From: Thiomicrorhabdus cannonii
Lineage (GTDB): Bacteria; Pseudomonadota; Gammaproteobacteria; Thiomicrospirales; Thiomicrospiraceae
Assembly: GCF_013391695.1 (NCBI RefSeq)
Contig: NZ_JACBGH010000001.1
Span: 496,001-560,000 of the forward strand
DNA: 64,000 bases
Direction of reading: 5' to 3'
Shown here one piece after another: positions 55,763-64,000 of the stretch. The notes below the pieces were generated by a model. It worked only from the letters and a program-made list of their open reading frames with translations. It was not told where the DNA came from and searched no databases. Both the position numbers and the translations under genes were made by a program. Positions within the stretch are counted from its first letter, which is position 1, and the number at the start of each line of letters is the position of its first letter.

Positions 55763-56062
55763 ATGGTACAGACATACGAAGACCTGCATGAACAGGTGTC
55801 ATCTGTTTTAGGTCGATTTTTAGCGTCTGACAACCAGGCCGCCATTACGTTTAATATCGAAGAGAGCGGATTGTGCGCGCTGAAAAACCAAAGCAACGGC
55901 AATCAATTCAAGTTTATGTTGGCCCGCTTTGGCGACGAATATAAGGTTGGATTTGCCTTTTTCGAGGCACATCAACCCCAGCCCGTCTGGATTGACGATG
56001 TGCTGAACGCCAACTTCGATGAAGGGTTTATCAACACCCTCATTACAGAGCATCTGATCTAG
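55763..56062 (+). CDS. Hypothetical protein downstream of dabA
   Basis: 99 residues, acidic, without signal peptide or membrane segment. ATAGGAGAAAAGG before the ATG is a strong ribosome-binding site. I recognise no family. Predicted mixed alpha/beta (ITFNIEESGLCALKN; FKFMLARFGDEYKVGFAFF). It has its own likely transcript, since a strong terminator separates it from dabA, and lies between the converging dab and cso units. Confidence 0.7.
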   Translation: MVQTYEDLHEQVSSVLGRFLASDNQAAITFNIEESGLCALKNQSNGNQFKFMLARFGDEYKVGFAFFEAHQPQPVWIDDVLNANFDEGFINTLITEHLI

Positions 56063-57133: not shown

Positions 57134-57757
57134 TTACTGGTTTCCTCGGCAGGTCAATTTTGACAACGCCGCATTGGCAGCTCTGGCTGCTTCATTAATA
57201 TCGTCTTCTTTCCCGCTCATCAGCAGACGTCCGTAAGCACCGACCGCACGGGCTTCCACCAAGGTGACATTGGCCGCTTTCTCGGCCTCATTGGCGGCAT
57301 AAATGATGTATCCCGCCGGCTCGGTTTCCATAATAAACATACTTTGCCCCGGCATAATCATCGAACCTTTGCGGTTGTCGCGATTAATCAGGGTAGCATG
57401 GTCGGCCGTCACCCCCCTAATCACCTCACTCCACATCACCACACATTGCTGGCGATCAAATTCATGGGTATTGAGATGTTTGAGAATATGCCGACCGCTT
57501 TCCAAAACATCACTCTGATCGCGGTGATGAATCACGGTTGAACCGTAGGCGCGCTCAACAATCTGCTGCGCCAAACGCACATTAGACGCCTTCAGCGCAA
57601 TATCCGACAAGCGATGAACCGCCATCCCCGGGGCCACCTCAACCCACAGGCAAGAATCCCCCGGAACGGGCAAGAAACCCATCGAGGCGGTAGCCATATA
57701 GGAAGCCAGCTGCGGCTGCAGCGAATCCAGAAACACATAGGTTCGCAACTCAATCAT
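57134..57757 (-). CDS. csoS1D: Carboxysome shell protein CsoS1D (tandem BMC, BMC-T)
   Basis: Pseudohexameric shell trimer whose stacked rings have a large gated pore, suited to RuBP and 3-PGA passage. The 207 residues hold two BMC domains: about 1-100 ([42 protein letters not shown]) and about 105-205 ([41 protein letters not shown]). Shorter at the N-terminus than cyanobacterial CsoS1D. Overlaps rdgB by 4 bases. It is separated from the main cso operon by a terminator. Confidence 0.88.
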
Positions 57758-58359
57758 AACGACACCCTCTGTTGTAACTGATTCAAGACAGACTGTACAG
57801 CCTGTGCCCGGTGGCTAATTTTGTTTTTAACCTCTGGCGGAATCTCAGAAACCGCTTTGACCAATCTTGGAATCCACATAACGTCATCATAACCGATCCC
57901 CTGACCGGTCCTTCTTTCCATTAAAACTTCACCATACAGATGCCCAACGCCAACCAGCGGCATGGGATCCTCGGCGTGCTCCACATACACCACCGCACAC
58001 GAATAACGGGCCTGACGCTGCGAATAGGGAACCCCCCGCAGATCGGCGAGCAATTTCTGCAGGTTGCGCTCGTCGGAGGTACCGCCAGCGCTGCCCGCGG
58101 CATAACGCGCCGAAAAGATGCCCGGCTTGCCTGCCAGCGCAGAAACCTCGATGCCGGAATCATCCGCCAGCGCCGGCAAGCCCGTTCTCTGGCTGGCAAA
58201 GCGGGCCTTTTTGAGCGCATTTTCAATAAAACTCAAACCGTCCTCCACCGCCTCTTCCTTGAAAAAGCGCGTTTGTGGTACCGCCTCTAAACCGGCGCGC
58301 GCCAGAATCGGCGCAATTTCTGCCATCTTGTTGGGGTTGGCTGTTGCTAAAACGATCAT
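57754..58359 (-). CDS. RdgB/Ham1-family nucleotide pyrophosphatase
   Basis: NTP pyrophosphatase of the ITPase/XTPase family that removes deaminated purine nucleotides. Motifs: [48 protein letters not shown] (positions about 60-84), SHRAQAV. The usual GFGYDP loop reads [11 protein letters not shown], a change that could alter substrate choice. I start at 58359, which has ACAGG upstream and matches homologues, not at 58374. About 201 residues. Located inside a carboxysome gene cluster, so a dedicated role is possible. Confidence 0.88.
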
Positions 58360-58363
58360 GCGA

Positions 58364-58771
58364 TTACCTGTCATTTAACGGATTGTCTACATCGCCAGCT
58401 GACGAAAACATCAGCACCGCGATGCCGTCTTCACTGAACTCGTTGATCTTTTTTTTCAGCAAGGCATGCTCATCCTCGTTTACCGACACCATCAACATCA
58501 TATTCTTTTCCAGTAACGGCTGAATCATCTCAAAGTCGGGCGAACTATCGCCAATCACCTCGCTGAGAGGACTGACCTTGAGTCCGAGTTTTTTCAACTC
58601 CAGCAGGACTTCGCGCTCCATTAACCGGCTGGCCAGTATTTGAATCATTTTGTCCGGGCCGTGTGATTGAGCCGTATCGTTTATGCGCTGCAATAAAGAG
58701 AGATCGGGGAGAACAACATCCCTATTAAAACTCCAGCTTTCCGTTTCGCTATTGTCTTCAATCCATTCCAT
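58364..58771 (-). CDS. Unknown protein in the csoS1D-lysR unit
   Basis: About 135 residues, acidic, no signal or membrane segment. Start at 58771 is chosen for GGAAGGGA upstream; an ATG 15 bases further up is possible. No family recognised. Visible features: an acidic N-terminus (MEWIEDNSETESW), a helical centre (MIQILASRLMEREVLLELKK) and a C-terminal part (MLMVSVNEDEHALLKKKINE; IAVLMF) that could form a ferredoxin-like alpha/beta fold. First gene of the unit with rdgB, csoS1D and lysR, four bases from rdgB. Confidence 0.75.
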   Translation of the reverse strand: MEWIEDNSETESWSFNRDVVLPDLSLLQRINDTAQSHGPDKMIQILASRLMEREVLLELKKLGLKVSPLSEVIGDSSPDFEMIQPLLEKNMMLMVSVNEDEHALLKKKINEFSEDGIAVLMFSSAGDVDNPLNDR

Positions 58772-58930
58772 AGCGTTCCCTTCCATGTGCTCTATCTATA
58801 ACCTGTCAACCATCATATTGAATTTACAGATATTTTATAAATTGAAATTTCTGGCAACTTCTATAGATTCAAGTGAATGGATCAAAACAGATTCAATCTC
58901 CACTGCATCAGGCAAACAAAACACACAGAT

Positions 58931-58961
58931 AAAAAAAAGGGGCAGAACCGGTACTACCCCT
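58931..58961 (-). terminator. Terminator of the main cso operon
   Basis: On the minus strand AGGGGTAG pairs with CTGCCCCT (one G-T) over an 8-base loop, followed by eight T. It lies 54 bases beyond the McdB-like stop and separates the main cso operon from the csoS1D unit. Confidence 0.9.
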
Positions 58962-59014: not shown

Positions 59015-59362
59015 CTAATCAGGCCACACTCTTCTTCGGGGAAAGACTTTGATCTGATCGGCGATATGATCGGAAACAGGCTCCATTTTCGGCTCCATGA
59101 CTTTGTTATTGCCAACAGAGCTCGGCGCGCCGGTTTTCTGCGCCGCGCCGCTAGTTTCTGCCGCCGGCTTGCTAGCGGTTTTAGCCGCAGGCTTAACCGT
59201 AGTTTTAACCGCTTCTGGCGCGGCCGTTTTTTCTGCTATGGCCTCGCTGGCTGGCCCTTCACCGGCCTGTTCAGTTTTGGCCGTGTCCGCTTTGGCCGTG
59301 CTGTTCGCAACGGCTTTTGGCGCCGCCATACCCGGCCTGTTTGAATTTTTGGACGTCGTCAT
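59015..59362 (-). CDS. McdB-like carboxysome positioning protein (candidate)
   Basis: 115 residues, very rich in Ala, Lys, Pro, Thr and Glu and predicted disordered. It has a short N-terminal basic motif (KNSNRPGMAAPKA), a long low-complexity centre (VKTTVKPAAKTASKPAAET) and the C-terminal end FPRRRVWPD. A near-terminal invariant Trp within RVWPD is the hallmark I associate with alpha-carboxysome McdB, which links carboxysomes to the ParA-type ATPase McdA. AAGGAGCACAGC precedes the chosen ATG. Two copies of the dispersed DNA repeat lie inside the gene. No McdA/ParA gene is in the window. Confidence 0.7.
   Translation of the reverse strand: MTTSKNSNRPGMAAPKAVANSTAKADTAKTEQAGEGPASEAIAEKTAAPEAVKTTVKPAAKTASKPAAETSGAAQKTGAPSSVGNNKVMEPKMEPVSDHIADQIKVFPRRRVWPD
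59260..59276 (-). repeat. In-gene copy (15/17) of the dispersed repeat (McdB-like gene, first)
   Basis: Minus strand AACTGAACAGGCCGG is exact and is read as TEQAG. Confidence 0.7.
59330..59347 (-). repeat. In-gene partial copy of the dispersed repeat (McdB-like gene, second)
   Basis: Minus strand AACAGGCCGGGT is exact (12 bases), preceded by a diverged AATTCA instead of AACTC. It encodes NRPGM in the N-terminal motif. Confidence 0.55.
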
Positions 59363-59372
59363 GCTGTGCTCC

Positions 59373-59633
59373 TTATGGCTGCTGAGTGACACGCTGGAAA
59401 CTCTTATCAATCCCGTCAGCCAGGTCAAAATCACTCTTTCCGAGCGTGCCTGTTTTGGCGTAAATAATCACCGCCACATGCTCTCTGCCAAAGCTGATAT
59501 TGGCATGGTGGTCCAAGCGTTCTGACTCCTCGGCAATCTGGTCTAAAAAGCTTCTCAGCTTCTCAAAACTGTCAAATTCAAAGCGGGATTCCAGACTGCC
59601 CGGTTTATCCTTTTGTTTCCATCGTTCATTCAT
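59373..59633 (-). CDS. Pterin-dehydratase-like RuBisCO assembly factor (acRAF)
   Basis: 86 residues with the pterin-4a-carbinolamine dehydratase fold. The double His of the active site is kept (ERLDHHANISFG), but the later TH pair appears as AK (VIIYAKTG), in line with reports that carboxysomal members are RuBisCO chaperones and not active dehydratases. Overlaps the ferritin-like gene by 4 bases and precedes the McdB-like gene by 10. Confidence 0.85.
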   Translation of the reverse strand: MNERWKQKDKPGSLESRFEFDSFEKLRSFLDQIAEESERLDHHANISFGREHVAVIIYAKTGTLGKSDFDLADGIDKSFQRVTQQP

Positions 59634-60178
59634 ATAAAGCTCCTAGCTGGCTGATACGCCTGTGTCAGGTTATGGAAATACTCCTCCAACCAAGACTGTA
59701 CCCTCATCAACTGAGACTGCTCTTCCTCCAACAGACGGCTGAAAAGCGCATGGTCTTCATAGGCACTGAAATTGGCACAATATTGCGCCGCTTCGGAATA
59801 CAGCTGAATCAACGCGATTTCACGTTCTTCGCAACTTCTCAAGGCTTCGGCAATATTCGTCGCCGGACCGGCCGGACGTAAAACACTCCCGGCAGGCAAA
59901 GCGCCCTGCGCCACCATACGATCGGTGATCAGGTTCGCATGCTGGAACTCTTCATTAGCCAAGGTGACAAAGGCTTCCGCATACGGAATCTCCTGACGGA
60001 ATTTTGCCAACGAAGCCTGTGCGAGATAATGCTGACCGGCTGAAAACTCCAGGCTCAATGCCCGTCCCAAATACCCCAGAATCTGACTATTTGCAGTCGC
60101 GGTCTGTGCTTGCGGTACTTGAGGATAAGAACCAAAACCCGGCATTACACTGCCCGGCATTCGTCCAGAATAGCGCAT
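59630..60178 (-). CDS. Bacterioferritin-like protein of the cso operon
   Basis: 182 residues, four-helix ferritin-like fold. Start at 60178 is set by GAGGAGAAAGAC upstream. The first 35 residues (MRYSGRMPGSVMPGFGSYP and on) are Gly/Pro-rich and lie before the first helix, longer than in ordinary bacterioferritin. First-helix-pair iron ligands look present (SLEFSAGQHY; ANEEFQHAN, E-x2-H), but the last E-x2-H of bacterioferritin appears as EEEQSQ, so the di-iron site may be incomplete. Conserved in alpha-carboxysome operons, role unknown. Confidence 0.83.
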   Translation of the reverse strand: MRYSGRMPGSVMPGFGSYPQVPQAQTATANSQILGYLGRALSLEFSAGQHYLAQASLAKFRQEIPYAEAFVTLANEEFQHANLITDRMVAQGALPAGSVLRPAGPATNIAEALRSCEEREIALIQLYSEAAQYCANFSAYEDHALFSRLLEEEQSQLMRVQSWLEEYFHNLTQAYQPARSFI

Positions 60179-60243
60179 GTCTTTCTCCTCACATCTCAAA
60201 TCGGAGGCCAATAATGCATCAGCCTCCGGACCTTAATCATCGG

Positions 60244-60549
60244 TTAGCTGCGACTGGCGGAATTGCCGTTTGCAACCAAAACCGGCTCAACCTCTTTATG
60301 CGGACGGGCGATGATGTGCGCGGCCACCAGACCGTCGCCGACGCGTTCACACGCATCCGCTCCGGCACGTACCGCCGCATTCACCGCACCGGTTTCACCA
60401 CGCACCATGACCGTAACGTAACCGCCGCCTACAAATTCGCGGCTCACCAGACGTACTTCCGCCGCTTTTGTCATTGCATCCGCCGCTTCAATCGCAGGCA
60501 CCAAACCGCGGGTTTCGATCATACCCAACGCAATACCGTATTCACTCAT
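60244..60549 (-). CDS. csoS1B: Carboxysome shell hexamer CsoS1B
   Basis: BMC-H shell protein that tiles the carboxysome facets. The 101 residues contain GMIETRGLVPAIEAAD, KAAEVRLVSREFVGGGYV and the BMC helix GAVNAAVRAGADACERVG. It ends in a tail VANGNSASRS longer than in the two paralogues, as in CsoS1B of other species. ATG at 60549 with AAGGAG upstream; a GTG codon directly before it is ignored. Confidence 0.93.
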   Translation of the reverse strand: MSEYGIALGMIETRGLVPAIEAADAMTKAAEVRLVSREFVGGGYVTVMVRGETGAVNAAVRAGADACERVGDGLVAAHIIARPHKEVEPVLVANGNSASRS

Positions 60550-60614
60550 CACTTTCTCCTTAATACCAATCAGAATGCATTTTGCTGCCCCAGCTCACTG
60601 AGGCAGGCATTGAA

Positions 60615-60908
60615 TTACTTTTGTTCAACGGTTAAAACCGGCTCGACTTCCTTGTGCGGGCGAGCGATGATGTGCGCGGCCACCAGACCGTCACCCACGC
60701 GTTCACACGCATCCGCGCCAGCACGCACCGCTGCGTTGACCGCACCGGTTTCGCCGCGCACCATGACGGTGACATAACCGCCACCCACAAATTCACGGCT
60801 GATCAAGCGTACTTCCGCTGCTTTTGTCATCGCATCCGCGGCCTCAATGGCCGGTACCAAACCGCGCGTTTCAATCATTCCCAATGCAATACCATATTCC
60901 GTACTCAT
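60615..60908 (-). CDS. csoS1A: Carboxysome shell hexamer CsoS1A
   Basis: 97-residue BMC-H protein, nearly identical to its neighbours across the core. It differs at the N-terminus (MSTEYGI, one extra residue), in one position of the second strand (RLIS for RLVS) and at the C-terminus (VLTVEQK). Assignment as A and not C rests on position in the usual C-A-B order. Confidence 0.92.
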   Translation of the reverse strand: MSTEYGIALGMIETRGLVPAIEAADAMTKAAEVRLISREFVGGGYVTVMVRGETGAVNAAVRAGADACERVGDGLVAAHIIARPHKEVEPVLTVEQK

Positions 60909-60934
60909 TTCCTTTCTCCTTGTCAGTCACTCAA

Positions 60935-61225
60935 TTACTTCTGCTCAATTGCCAAAACGGGTTCAACTTCTTTGTGCGGGCGGGCAATGATGTGCGCCGC
61001 CACCAGACCGTCACCGACGCGTTCACACGCATCCGCGCCGGCACGTACCGCTGCGTTGACCGCCCCGGTTTCGCCACGCACCATGACCGTGACATAACCG
61101 CCGCCGACAAACTCCCGGCTCACCAGGCGCACCTCGGCTGCTTTTGTCATCGCATCCGCCGCTTCAATAGCTGGTACCAAACCACGAGTCTCGATCATGC
61201 CTAATGCAATACCGTATTCACTCAT
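60935..61225 (-). CDS. csoS1C: Carboxysome shell hexamer CsoS1C
   Basis: 96-residue BMC-H protein, first of three tandem copies. Only the last few residues (VLAIEQK) and silent sites set it apart from CsoS1A. Hexamers form flat layers with small central pores that pass bicarbonate and other anions. GGAGAGC-type ribosome-binding site upstream. Confidence 0.92.
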   Translation of the reverse strand: MSEYGIALGMIETRGLVPAIEAADAMTKAAEVRLVSREFVGGGYVTVMVRGETGAVNAAVRAGADACERVGDGLVAAHIIARPHKEVEPVLAIEQK

Positions 61226-61256: not shown

Positions 61257-61511
61257 TTACTTCTGTTCCGGCTGCCAGTCATCAATAATGCCGCCAACCG
61301 TCAAATCCGTTAATAACCGCGGGTCACCTGCCGCATCCCTGGCCGCTGAATTGGCGATGGTAAACACCCAATCGCCCGTTTTCGTGCCAATCGGATCCAT
61401 CGCTACAAAGAGCTCGCCCGATTCTGCTGCCAGCGCCTTCAGGGGTAAATGACCTAATCCTTCCAGGCGGCAAGTCAGAACCAACTGCTTTTTAACTTGT
61501 AGTATCTGCAT
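61257..61511 (-). CDS. csoS4B: Carboxysome vertex pentamer CsoS4B
   Basis: 84-residue EutN/CcmL-type (BMC-P) protein that caps the twelve vertices. Signatures: VAMDPIGTKTGDWVF and NSAARDAAGDPRLL. Its start at 61511 (MQILQVKKQLVLTCRL) lies inside csoS4A, giving a 20-base overlap; a longer frame opens upstream but does not fit the family length. Confidence 0.92.
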   Translation of the reverse strand: MQILQVKKQLVLTCRLEGLGHLPLKALAAESGELFVAMDPIGTKTGDWVFTIANSAARDAAGDPRLLTDLTVGGIIDDWQPEQK

Positions 61512-61764
61512 CCTGTGGTACTTCCCATTTGTCGATAATGCCAACGATCGTCAAATCGCTGGGGTAACCCTTAACGCCGGTCGCATCGCGTGCCGCCGAA
61601 CTGCCACAACACAACACCCAGTCCCCCGGTTTGCACCCTACCGGATCCACCGCCACCTGAGGGCTTCCGCCCTCCTTCTCTCTGACGACCAGCAAAGGCT
61701 TATGCTCCATCGTCGGAATGCGGCTTGTCGAAACGAGGGTTTTATCGACTCTATACACTTTCAT
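61492..61764 (-). CDS. csoS4A: Carboxysome vertex pentamer CsoS4A
   Basis: 90-residue BMC-P protein with VAVDPVGCKPGDWVLCCG and SSAARDATGVKGYPSDL, ending IIDKWEVPQDADTTS. AAAGGAGGTGACGA before the ATG is close to the ideal ribosome-binding site. 13 bases after csoSCA. Confidence 0.93.
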   Translation of the reverse strand: MKVYRVDKTLVSTSRIPTMEHKPLLVVREKEGGSPQVAVDPVGCKPGDWVLCCGSSAARDATGVKGYPSDLTIVGIIDKWEVPQDADTTS

Positions 61765-61777
61765 TCGTCACCTCCTT

Positions 61778-63361
61778 TCATGCACTTTTAAAGGCAGCCG
61801 GTGTATCCGCCAGACCGGCTAATCTTTCAGCAGGCCGGCAACCGGTATAATCCCTGAGCGTCGGCATGGTCTGTAGCAACCCTGCCGCGGCCAACTCCTG
61901 ATAACGGTTATGCAAGGCCTTTTCGATACGTAACGCCTTGGCTTGTGCACGCTCTCTGGACTCCGGCACTCGGCCATCGTAATCACAGCGGATAATGATC
62001 GGGATCGGCAAGCCCTGTTTCACATTCAGGCCCTTGAAAATCTTGATGCCGACATCCACGTCATTCACCCCTTCCTCAACCGTATCGAGAAAGCTGTAAT
62101 AACTCAGGTTACGCAGCTGCACCTCTTCAAAACCATTGCCGACGCCGATAAAGCGTTCTGCATGTCCAATATCGCTGTAGCAGCCGTTCTCGTAACGGTT
62201 CACATAAGCAATCTGCGAAAAATTATTCGCAATCAACCAACCGAGCAGCGTCACCATTTCTTCCTGTGGCGCTGTCGCCCCCTTGTCCTGATTGCAGCTA
62301 TTCAACGCCGCCGCCAGAGTTTGCTTCGCCTCGTTCTCAGGCAAGTTCAAGGTCGCCTGATAGAGCTGTGCGGTCTCCACATAACGGCTTAAGCACACCT
62401 CGCCTCTGCCATTCGGAACATGTACCTTCAGACTGTCGTCATCCGTATTCAATCCGAGCAGCAGCGTTTGTACCGTCGAGCCGCAACCGAAGCGGTTCTC
62501 GATCGCCTGTTTAAAATCGTTGAGTTTCTGTAAAGCCGCTTGCGCCGCTTTCTGGTCATCACTGCCATGTGCCGCACAGCCCTGATGGGACGGATCGGCT
62601 TTTGAAAAGTGATAGACCGCAATTTTCAGATAACGTGTCGGTTCATCTGCCGCATTGGGCTTACCTTCACGAAATCGTGTGTGTTCTATAAATACCCAAT
62701 TACGCACGCTTTCACTCACGTCGAACAGTGCGCCGGCGTGTGCCTTGCGTCTTGCCAGGGCATAAGGCAAGCGCAGCACGTAACTTAGAATGTGCGCCAA
62801 ACGTCCGTCTGCACAAGGAGCAACCCCCACGGCGTGGAACCCGGCCTGTCTAAAAATACGTTCCGCCTCATGTTTTTTCTGACCCTCCAACGGGTCTTTA
62901 ATAAAAAACTCTTCCGACATTCTCATAAACTGGGCAAAGAGGGTCTTTGCATACAGAACCTGAAAACCTATCTGCGACGGCATCTTCAATGCCGATAGCC
63001 AATCCTGTTCCGCCAAGCGCACACCCAACTTTGCAAACAGCTGTTGGTTAGCCCAACCGACAAAACCGCTCTGACTCTGCTGGGATAAAATCGCCTTCAA
63101 AACCGGTCCGATATCATCAAAACGCGATTTGACGGCCACTTCATACTGGCGCAGCCATTCGTTCTGTCGTTCATTCACCAAAACATGGGTGCCGGTCATT
63201 GACCAAGCCGTCTGCATGCTTTGCATTCCACCGTTCGCATCCACGTCCGCAGCGCCAGCCTGACTTCCATGAGCAGTTGAATCCTGCTGCCACTGCGGTT
63301 TGAACTCGATCGGCTTCCAAAACAATGACTTTTGACGATAATTACTTTTTGAACGATTCAT
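61778..63361 (-). CDS. csoSCA: Carboxysomal carbonic anhydrase CsoSCA (CsoS3)
   Basis: Beta-class carbonic anhydrase inside the shell that turns bicarbonate to CO2 next to RuBisCO. About 527 residues. Zinc and catalytic residues are visible as PCADGRLAH (Cys ligand, catalytic Asp and Arg), GCAAHG (His ligand) and RFGCGSTVQ (Cys ligand). The N-terminal approximately 60 residues (KSNYRQKSLFWKP and on) are polar and probably unstructured, where RuBisCO binding has been reported in relatives. ATG at 63361 is chosen over a TTG 12 bases upstream. Confidence 0.94.
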   Translation of the reverse strand: MNRSKSNYRQKSLFWKPIEFKPQWQQDSTAHGSQAGAADVDANGGMQSMQTAWSMTGTHVLVNERQNEWLRQYEVAVKSRFDDIGPVLKAILSQQSQSGFVGWANQQLFAKLGVRLAEQDWLSALKMPSQIGFQVLYAKTLFAQFMRMSEEFFIKDPLEGQKKHEAERIFRQAGFHAVGVAPCADGRLAHILSYVLRLPYALARRKAHAGALFDVSESVRNWVFIEHTRFREGKPNAADEPTRYLKIAVYHFSKADPSHQGCAAHGSDDQKAAQAALQKLNDFKQAIENRFGCGSTVQTLLLGLNTDDDSLKVHVPNGRGEVCLSRYVETAQLYQATLNLPENEAKQTLAAALNSCNQDKGATAPQEEMVTLLGWLIANNFSQIAYVNRYENGCYSDIGHAERFIGVGNGFEEVQLRNLSYYSFLDTVEEGVNDVDVGIKIFKGLNVKQGLPIPIIIRCDYDGRVPESRERAQAKALRIEKALHNRYQELAAAGLLQTMPTLRDYTGCRPAERLAGLADTPAAFKSA

Positions 63362-63389
63362 CAAAACACCCAATTATTCAGTTACTTGT

Positions 63390-64000
63390 TTACGCTCTCG
63401 CGCCACCGGACAGAGTGACTTTCGCCCCCGTATCCGTGTTGCCGGATGACCCCGTAATCGGACTCATCGGCAATTCAAAATTGGCGCGTTTGAACTGACC
63501 GGCTCCCATCGGGGCCTGTCCTTTAGCGCCTCTGATCGAGGCGTTGCGCTGTGCCGCCCAAGGGCCGTCCGTACCGGTGACTTTGGAACCGCGATCCCAT
63601 CCGTCACCGGTAATTTTTGCTCCCTGATCCGCCACCGCTTCGGTCATGGCCACCGGCATCGTCGCTTGTCCGATGAGCGTCGGAAAATCCGACTCCCCCG
63701 GCATCGCGGCATTGCCCGTTTCACACACCATGGCCGTCTGGTCCGCACCCAGGTAAGGGTTGCCCGTTACCAGTTTGCAAGCGCCTTTCTGCGCACCGGT
63801 CAAGCCTTGCAGCCCCGGTTGAACCCCCGATATCGCAGGGTTTGCGCCTTGACGGCGACGTTGCTGCATTTCCGCTTGTCGCGGCGCGCTGCAACTTGCT
63901 GCCTGCTCAACCCCCACATAGGGCGTGCCCGTGACCGTCTGACAGGAACCAGCCTGACCGCCCGTCATATTCGACGTGCCGCCGCTGCGGTCACCGGTGA
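63390..64000 (-). CDS. csoS2: Carboxysome scaffold CsoS2, C-terminal part (cut by window edge)
   Basis: Disordered scaffold that joins RuBisCO to the shell. Only the last about 200 residues are here; the frame runs off the right end (TGDRSGGTSN before the first Met). The region has M-type repeats with the CsoS2 pattern: GSCQTVTGTPYVGVEQ and GACKLVTGNPYLGADQ, with Cys pairs. The C-terminal part (TGDGWDRGSKVTGTDGPWA; SIRGAKG) is the shell-anchoring segment. RuBisCO genes cbbLS are expected just beyond the window. Confidence 0.93.
   Translation of the reverse strand, partial: TGDRSGGTSNMTGGQAGSCQTVTGTPYVGVEQAASCSAPRQAEMQQRRRQGANPAISGVQPGLQGLTGAQKGACKLVTGNPYLGADQTAMVCETGNAAMPGESDFPTLIGQATMPVAMTEAVADQGAKITGDGWDRGSKVTGTDGPWAAQRNASIRGAKGQAPMGAGQFKRANFELPMSPITGSSGNTDTGAKVTLSGGARA

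What the first reader, a model, noticed from the sequence alone, without database searches (positions are those of the whole stretch)
59015..59362. McdB-like protein without a neighbouring McdA
Seen: a low-complexity 115-residue protein at the end of the cso operon with a terminal RVWPD. Known: alpha-carboxysome McdB proteins are disordered and end in an invariant Trp, and normally pair with a ParA-type McdA often encoded nearby. No ParA-like gene is in this window. The strain may have an unlinked McdA or an McdA-independent use of McdB.
Basis: partly seen in the sequence, partly recalled or inferred. Interest (0 to 1): 0.58.

Follow-up and report, generated by a model that had tools for sequence, protein, structure and literature searches.

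The report
Carboxysome-tail protein without its motor
The gene encodes a small disordered protein that should stick to the bacterium's carbon-fixing organelles, and it has been kept although this genome appears to lack the positioning ATPase that such proteins normally work with, which suggests a second, unknown job.

Summary
The ORF is real: minus strand, 59362..59015, 115 aa, Shine-Dalgarno AAGGAG, last gene of the cso cluster, followed by a terminator. It is an alpha-McdB. It ends exactly in the published R(V/I)WPD tail and is disordered. It matches the published 'orphaned alpha-McdB type 2': in the cso operon, no mcdA beside it, no McdA-binding N-terminal helix motif. What goes beyond that description is that the genome (99.98% complete) shows no McdA at all. 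Its ParA/MinD proteins are Soj, MinD, FlhG, Mrp and CpaE, and no second ORF of more than 17 codons ends in [V/I]WPD. One relative's mcdAB site is found in this genome without mcdAB. On a tree of cso proteins the window nests among McdA-positive relatives, so loss is likelier than never having it. The same state occurs in single-contig genomes of relatives (G025, G031, G061) and in other families of the class. All 11 scorable McdA-less genomes in two surveys keep the orphan, and this window's 17-residue tail equals the family consensus. Best reading: a shell-docking protein whose retained function does not need McdA. What it does on the shell is not shown. Known kind, new context; interest moderate.

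The parts
59015..59362 (-). orphan alpha-McdB (type 2), 115 aa, tail HIADQIKVFPRRRVWPD
   Evidence: SD AAGGAG 8 nt before ATG
59015..59068 (-). conserved tail codons and stop: HIADQIKVFPRRRVWPD*
   Evidence: column consensus of 30 orphans equals this tail; RVWPD 30 of 30; pN 0.07 against pS 0.64 versus G047
58930..58961 (-). intrinsic-terminator-like hairpin and T run closing the cso transcription unit
59373..59633 (-). acRAF (pterin-dehydratase-like Rubisco assembly factor)
   Evidence: Pterin_4a E 5e-11
59630..60211 (-). ferritin-like gene of the cso operon
   Evidence: PF00210 E 5.2e-9
60244..61225 (-). three csoS1 shell genes
   Evidence: ORFs; blast matches among relatives
61257..61764 (-). 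csoS4B and csoS4A vertex proteins
61778..63373 (-). csoSCA
   Evidence: name recalled from the operon order
63390..64000 (-). csoS2 (continues past the window edge; cbbS and cbbL follow)
58364..58786 (-). CPII/SbtB-like PII protein with an N-terminal acidic-Trp tag, in the next transcription unit
57754..58374 (-). HAM1/RdgB-family gene
   Evidence: PF01725 E 5.1e-49
57134..57757 (-). csoS1D-like tandem-BMC shell protein
   Evidence: BMC domain E 8.5e-11; CcmP model E 2e-68, below its cut-off

Best explanation
The gene encodes an alpha-McdB of the orphan (type 2) kind: a disordered protein that docks on the alpha-carboxysome through its C-terminal RVWPD tail. Shown by others for H. neapolitanus McdB: its last 10 residues are enough for carboxysome association, and its first 20 residues are needed for McdA. 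Shown here: this protein has the tail, lacks the McdA-binding helix motif, and sits in a genome in which no McdA is detected. Inferred: it coats or decorates the shell without any ATPase. Of the jobs it could do there, I think the most likely is keeping carboxysomes apart or tuning their surface (a surfactant or adaptor role), with the extra HIADQIKxF segment as a second contact. The genome probably once had mcdAB and lost it while this gene stayed.
For: Tail identical to the published R(V/I)WPD consensus. AlphaFold model almost entirely coil, mean pLDDT 60.5. In-operon place after acRAF or the ferritin-like gene, shared by 30 family genomes. HIAD tail in 26 of 30 orphans and 0 of 37 McdA-paired McdB rows (34 distinct genes); type-1 helix motif in 27 of 37 paired and 1 of 30 orphans, this one lacking it. 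Genome-wide McdA search negative with strong positive controls. Only one ORF longer than 17 codons ends in [V/I]WPD in the genome. On a cso-protein tree the nearest relatives (G047, G046, G005) all have McdA. The place that carries mcdAB in G047 (nitroreductase and GGDEF genes on one side, another GGDEF gene on the other) is found at C2:21001-41000 without mcdAB and without an mcdA remnant. The tail equals the column consensus and its changes are mostly synonymous. All 11 scorable McdA-less genomes keep the orphan: G000, G025, G031, G061, G017, G057 and G185, G189, G268, G270, G303.
Against: The window genome is a 59-contig draft, so a small unassembled mcdAB cannot be ruled out. mcdAB sits in different places in different relatives, so one empty site is not proof, and that site is not a clean gap: a permease gene lies there. 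Retention in 11 of 11 McdA-less genomes is weak as statistics, because 24 of 34 scorable McdA-positive family genomes also have the orphan. Time since the loss is unknown, so conservation could partly predate it. The window's N-terminus is not uncharged (3 K/R, 0 D/E in 20 residues). The coat, surfactant or adaptor role has no direct evidence.
Confidence: 0.68

Rival explanations
1. A normal McdAB system exists: McdA is encoded elsewhere and missed, or lies in an assembly gap, and the orphan is the usual second McdB copy.
For: 14 of 19 in-operon solo McdBs in the class sample, and 24 of 30 in the family, do have McdA elsewhere. The genome is a 59-contig draft.
Against: Completeness 99.98%. The McdA profile finds McdA at E <= 1e-76 in 40 of 62 family genomes and at E <= 1.5e-47 in 57 of 66 others, but nothing beyond Soj here. 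Relatives assembled in one contig (G025, G031, G061) show the same absence. There is no second [V/I]WPD ORF.
Confidence: 0.08
2. A leftover: the orphan only modulated McdB type 1 on the shell and has lost its purpose with McdA, but has not yet decayed.
For: Losses look recent in some pairs (G031 beside G049). Retention by chance cannot be excluded for young losses.
Against: Intact frame, SD and exact consensus tail. Retained in McdA-less lineages of several genera and families.
Confidence: 0.15
3. The orphan recruits another positioning ATPase of this cell (Soj, MinD or FlhG) and still positions carboxysomes.
For: All three are present.
Against: No conserved N-terminal helix of the partner-protein kind is in the orphans. 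Work in H. neapolitanus suggests each ATPase has its own partner (PMC10241942, passages only).
Confidence: 0.07

Closest known systems
alpha-McdB type 2 ('orphaned' McdB in the cso operon; PMC8262871 section 6, citing MacCready et al. 2021)
   Same: In the cso operon, no mcdA beside it, no McdA-binding N-terminal motif, disordered, R(V/I)WPD tail.
   Different: The review describes type 2 in genomes whose mcdAB lies away from the cso operon; here no mcdAB is found anywhere. The N-terminus carries three basic residues. A longer HIADQIKxF tail block is shared within the family. The 2021 source paper itself was not available.
alpha-McdB type 1 (H. neapolitanus McdB and the pairs in relatives)
   Same: RVWPD tail, disorder, A/K/T/P-rich composition.
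   Different: Type 1 is encoded directly after mcdA and mostly has a KLxxSVRRAK-like N-terminal helix motif; here both are missing.
beta-McdB
   Same: Disorder and a C-terminal Trp.
   Different: Beta-McdB has a coiled coil and a different tail; none is predicted here.

Membership tests
alpha-McdB | C-terminal R(V/I)WPD | tested here: met
   RVWPD at the exact C-terminus; consensus in PMC11321042
alpha-McdB | almost complete disorder, no coiled coil | tested here: met
   AlphaFold mean pLDDT 60.5, only one 4-residue helix; biased composition
alpha-McdB | encoded with alpha-carboxysome genes | tested here: met
   10 nt after acRAF in the cso cluster
alpha-McdB | localises to carboxysomes through the Trp tail | not testable with these tools
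   needs microscopy
alpha-McdB type 1 | gene directly downstream of mcdA | tested here: not met
   acRAF is upstream; no McdA found in the genome
alpha-McdB type 1 | N-terminal McdA-binding helix (KLxxSVRxxK-like in this family) | tested here: not met
   motif in 27 of 37 paired McdB rows, not in this protein
alpha-McdB type 2 | in the cso operon without neighbouring mcdA | tested here: met
alpha-McdB type 2 | lacks a charged N-terminus | tested here: inconclusive
   3 K/R and 0 D/E in 20 residues; means 2.3 K/R in 30 orphans and 4.3 in 19 paired
alpha-McdB type 2 | a type-1 mcdAB pair elsewhere in the genome | tested here: not met
   this is the context in which the review describes type 2, perhaps not a strict requirement
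CPII/SbtB (neighbour 58364..58786) | PII-like fold and sequence | tested here: met
   profile hits TTHA0516 1.7e-6 and SbtB 9e-4; Foldseek TTHA0516, CPII and SbtB
CPII/SbtB (neighbour 58364..58786) | binds adenine nucleotides or bicarbonate | not testable with these tools
   needs binding assays

The most novel reading that the evidence does not exclude
Positioning is an optional add-on, and an RVWPD-tailed disordered protein is itself a core part of proteobacterial alpha-carboxysomes: McdA is lost repeatedly, but a protein with this tail is always kept. In this family the tail protein also exchanges a second handle, an acidic Trp tag, with the PII-like regulator CPII beside it, which would tie the shell surface to inorganic-carbon signalling.
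Probability: 0.25. Interest if true: 0.75.

Novelty: new variant of a known kind. Interest (0 to 1): 0.48.

Why it matters
The review that describes type-2 McdB leaves open why a cell needs an McdB that presumably does not interact with McdA (PMC8262871). Genomes that have lost McdA but kept this protein are natural McdA knockouts: whatever the protein still does there cannot be McdA-driven positioning. That makes the question testable, and it matters for attempts to move carboxysomes into other hosts, where clumping is a known problem (PMC8262871 passages).

Tried and rejected
Profile libraries do not know McdB: no hit in Pfam at E <= 10, only weak composition-driven hits in NCBIfam, none in PADLOC. 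A PF01656 search in the own genome gave seven hits, read here as Soj with ParB beside it, CobQ, MinD, FlhG, Mrp, Ffh and a helicase-like ATPase (names from sequence reading and recall). PF13614 added one, a CpaE-like protein beside CpaF-like and secretin-like genes. None is a McdA.

A first in-genome pattern search gave seven matches. Three have TGG instead of a stop, and three others are frames of 4 to 17 codons; only the window gene is an ORF. The pattern required CGN for arginine and therefore misses AGA/AGG tails, including the window's own; it was not used for counting.

Chance or mis-called ORF was rejected. A clean mcdAB deletion scar was looked for and not shown: a permease gene lies where G047 has mcdAB. 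The weaker ParA hits (about 1e-24 to 1e-36) were not taken as McdA. Those beside which I looked (Lamprocystis, Thiothrix, one MAG) have no WPD protein next to them; most were not looked at. G365 was set aside because its WPD protein has a type-1 N-terminus at a contig end. The AlphaFold model of the orphan gave no fold to search.

Rows dropped or limited: of 47 cso-bearing family genomes, 7 could not be scored for the orphan because contigs end (G010, G018, G028, G038, G039, G043, G045). Of 66 class genomes outside the family, regions were fetched for 60 and 4 of these end too early (G143, G149, G221, G279). The 37 paired McdB rows include 3 duplicates and one ORF with unread bases. Over-extended starts of several orphans were trimmed by eye.

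Full report
OBSERVATION. The ORF at 59362..59015 (minus) is real. It is 115 aa from an ATG with AAGGAG 8 nt upstream, starts 10 nt after the acRAF stop, and ends ...SDHIADQIKVFPRRRVWPD. A terminator-like hairpin follows at 58961..58930. The gene order is cbbL-cbbS-csoS2-csoSCA-csoS4A-csoS4B-csoS1x3-ferritin-like-acRAF-orphan, then a PII-like gene, HAM1, csoS1D and cbbR. The 30 kb beyond the cbbL end of the window hold no ParA-like gene (ORF lists).

IDENTITY. PMC11321042 (passages seen) gives the alpha-McdB tail as R(V/I)WPD, with WPD invariant, and reports that the last 10 residues of H. neapolitanus McdB suffice for carboxysome association. PMC12204374, a preprint (passages), reports that its first 20 residues are necessary and sufficient for McdA interaction. 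PMC8262871 section 6 (read whole) describes an orphaned alpha-McdB type 2 in the cso operon, without neighbouring mcdA and without a charged N-terminus, in genomes whose mcdAB lies away from the cso operon. The window protein fits that description by position, tail and disorder (AlphaFold mean pLDDT 60.5, one 4-residue helix). It fits less well by charge (3 K/R, 0 D/E in the first 20).

RELATIVES IN THE FAMILY. Of 62 genomes including the own, 47 have CsoS4A. The cso regions were fetched. Thirty genomes have the orphan, directly after acRAF or the ferritin-like gene; 10 do not; 7 cannot be scored. RVWPD is present in 30 of 30. The column consensus of the last 17 residues is HIADQIKVFPRRRVWPD, which is exactly the window's tail. 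In McdBs encoded next to McdA the HIAD block is absent (0 of 37 rows, 34 distinct genes) and a KLxxSVRR-like N-terminal motif is present in 27 of 37. In orphans the figures are 26 of 30 and 1 of 30. Contig lengths and titles identify G024 as Thiomicrorhabdus heinhorstiae HH1 and G042 and G046 as other Thiomicrorhabdus, so the window's genus is Thiomicrorhabdus.

NO McdA. A profile of eight McdAs finds McdA at E <= 1e-76 in 40 of 62 family genomes (weakest 1.2e-76); in the own genome its best hit is Soj at 4.8e-15. PF01656 and PF13614 list only Soj, MinD, FlhG, Mrp, CpaE-like and unrelated ATPases. The profile works outside the family (E <= 9e-55 in the three control genomes; E <= 1.5e-47 in 57 of 66 class genomes). 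Six family genomes have the orphan and no McdA: G000, G025, G031, G061, G017 and G057. G025, G031 and G061 are single contigs; G057 is only 83% complete. G018 also lacks McdA, but its contig ends inside what looks like the orphan.

LOSS RATHER THAN NEVER THERE. On a tree of concatenated cso proteins the own genome groups with G047, G046 and G005, all with McdA, and G031 is sister to G049, which has it (some nodes have low support, and the operon tree need not be the species tree). In G047 mcdAB lies between a nitroreductase plus GGDEF gene and another GGDEF gene. The own genome has these three genes at C2:21001-41000 with a permease gene in place of mcdAB, and no mcdA remnant by tblastn; G031 likewise lacks mcdAB beside its nitroreductase. 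mcdAB positions differ among relatives, so this is supporting, not conclusive.

BEYOND THE FAMILY. In an even sample of 369 class genomes, 70 have CsoS4A, 66 of them outside the family. Of 60 fetched regions 56 reach past acRAF, and all 56 contain an ORF ending WPD: 19 regions have one without McdA beside it, the other 37 only paired ones. Of the 19, 14 genomes have McdA elsewhere and 5 do not: G185, G189, G268, G270, G303. G268 and G270 each have a same-genus relative with McdA (G139, G143). G270 carries the related tail HIADQIKELPSKRVWPD; G185 ends KVWPD and is 94% complete. Among named loci, Lamprocystis purpurea, Thiothrix caldifontis and two MAGs also have a solo WPD protein and no convincing McdA, though completeness was not given. 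Together, 11 of 11 scorable McdA-less genomes in the two surveys keep the orphan. This is not statistically strong, because most McdA-positive relatives in the family have it too (24 of 34 scorable).

SELECTION. Over the last 17 codons the window gene differs from G047 at 7 synonymous and 3 non-synonymous positions (pS 0.64, pN 0.07); G031 against G049 gives pS 1.00 and pN 0.05. The samples are tiny and the time of McdA loss is unknown, but there is no sign of decay.

MECHANISM. Shown by others for related proteins: tail docking, and the McdA requirement for positioning. Shown here: tail kept, McdA-binding motif missing, McdA not detected. Inferred: the protein sits on the shell and acts without an ATPase. 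I favour a surface role, keeping carboxysomes from sticking together or linking the shell to another partner through the HIADQIKxF segment, but no data here decide it.

NOVELTY. Orphan alpha-McdBs are in print. Their occurrence in genomes without any McdA was not found in the listings of the paper searches or in the passages read of PMC12918739, PMC12204374, PMC10241942 and PMC13052382. The primary 2021 survey is not held, so it may already say so.

Noticed in passing
window 58364..58786 (-): A PII-like protein (CPII/SbtB fold) with an N-terminal extension carrying an acidic-Trp tag, EWIEDNSETESWSF. Orthologues with the tag follow the orphan McdB in relatives that have no SbtA-like gene there; untagged ones seen sit in loci with an SbtA-like gene where I looked.
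   Followed up: partly
L067 9648..9944, L069 9703..9981, L070 6134..6535, L071 9367..9669: In four Thiomicrorhabdus genomes (G023, G049, G025, G031) the same kind of acidic-Trp tag is at the N-terminus of the orphan McdB instead; where a CPII gene was found in these loci (L067, L071) it is untagged.
   Followed up: partly
window 55763..56062 (+): A 99-aa protein of unknown family, 54% identical to one encoded directly upstream of mcdAB in G005. A family of similar proteins also lies beside mcdAB in G046 and G047. Here it follows dabA. No Pfam or NCBIfam match.
   Followed up: partly
L082, L084, L086, L088-L092: cso loci of genus g6 (Thiomicrospira) have no CsoSCA match; an unrecognised protein of about 250-332 aa lies between csoS2 and csoS4A.
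   Followed up: no
L098, L099: cso loci of G001 and G021 show csoS2 followed by csoS4 genes with no CsoSCA match, and carry mcdAB inside the operon.
   Followed up: no
tree: Genomes of genus g3 (Hydrogenovibrio: G005, G010, G015) group among Thiomicrorhabdus on the cso-protein tree, which suggests operon transfer between genera.
   Followed up: no
PMC12918739 section 17 against PMC8262871 section 6: The 2026 review says the extra McdB without McdA is removed from the cso locus; the 2021 review says it is in the cso operon. The loci seen here agree with the 2021 review.
   Followed up: yes
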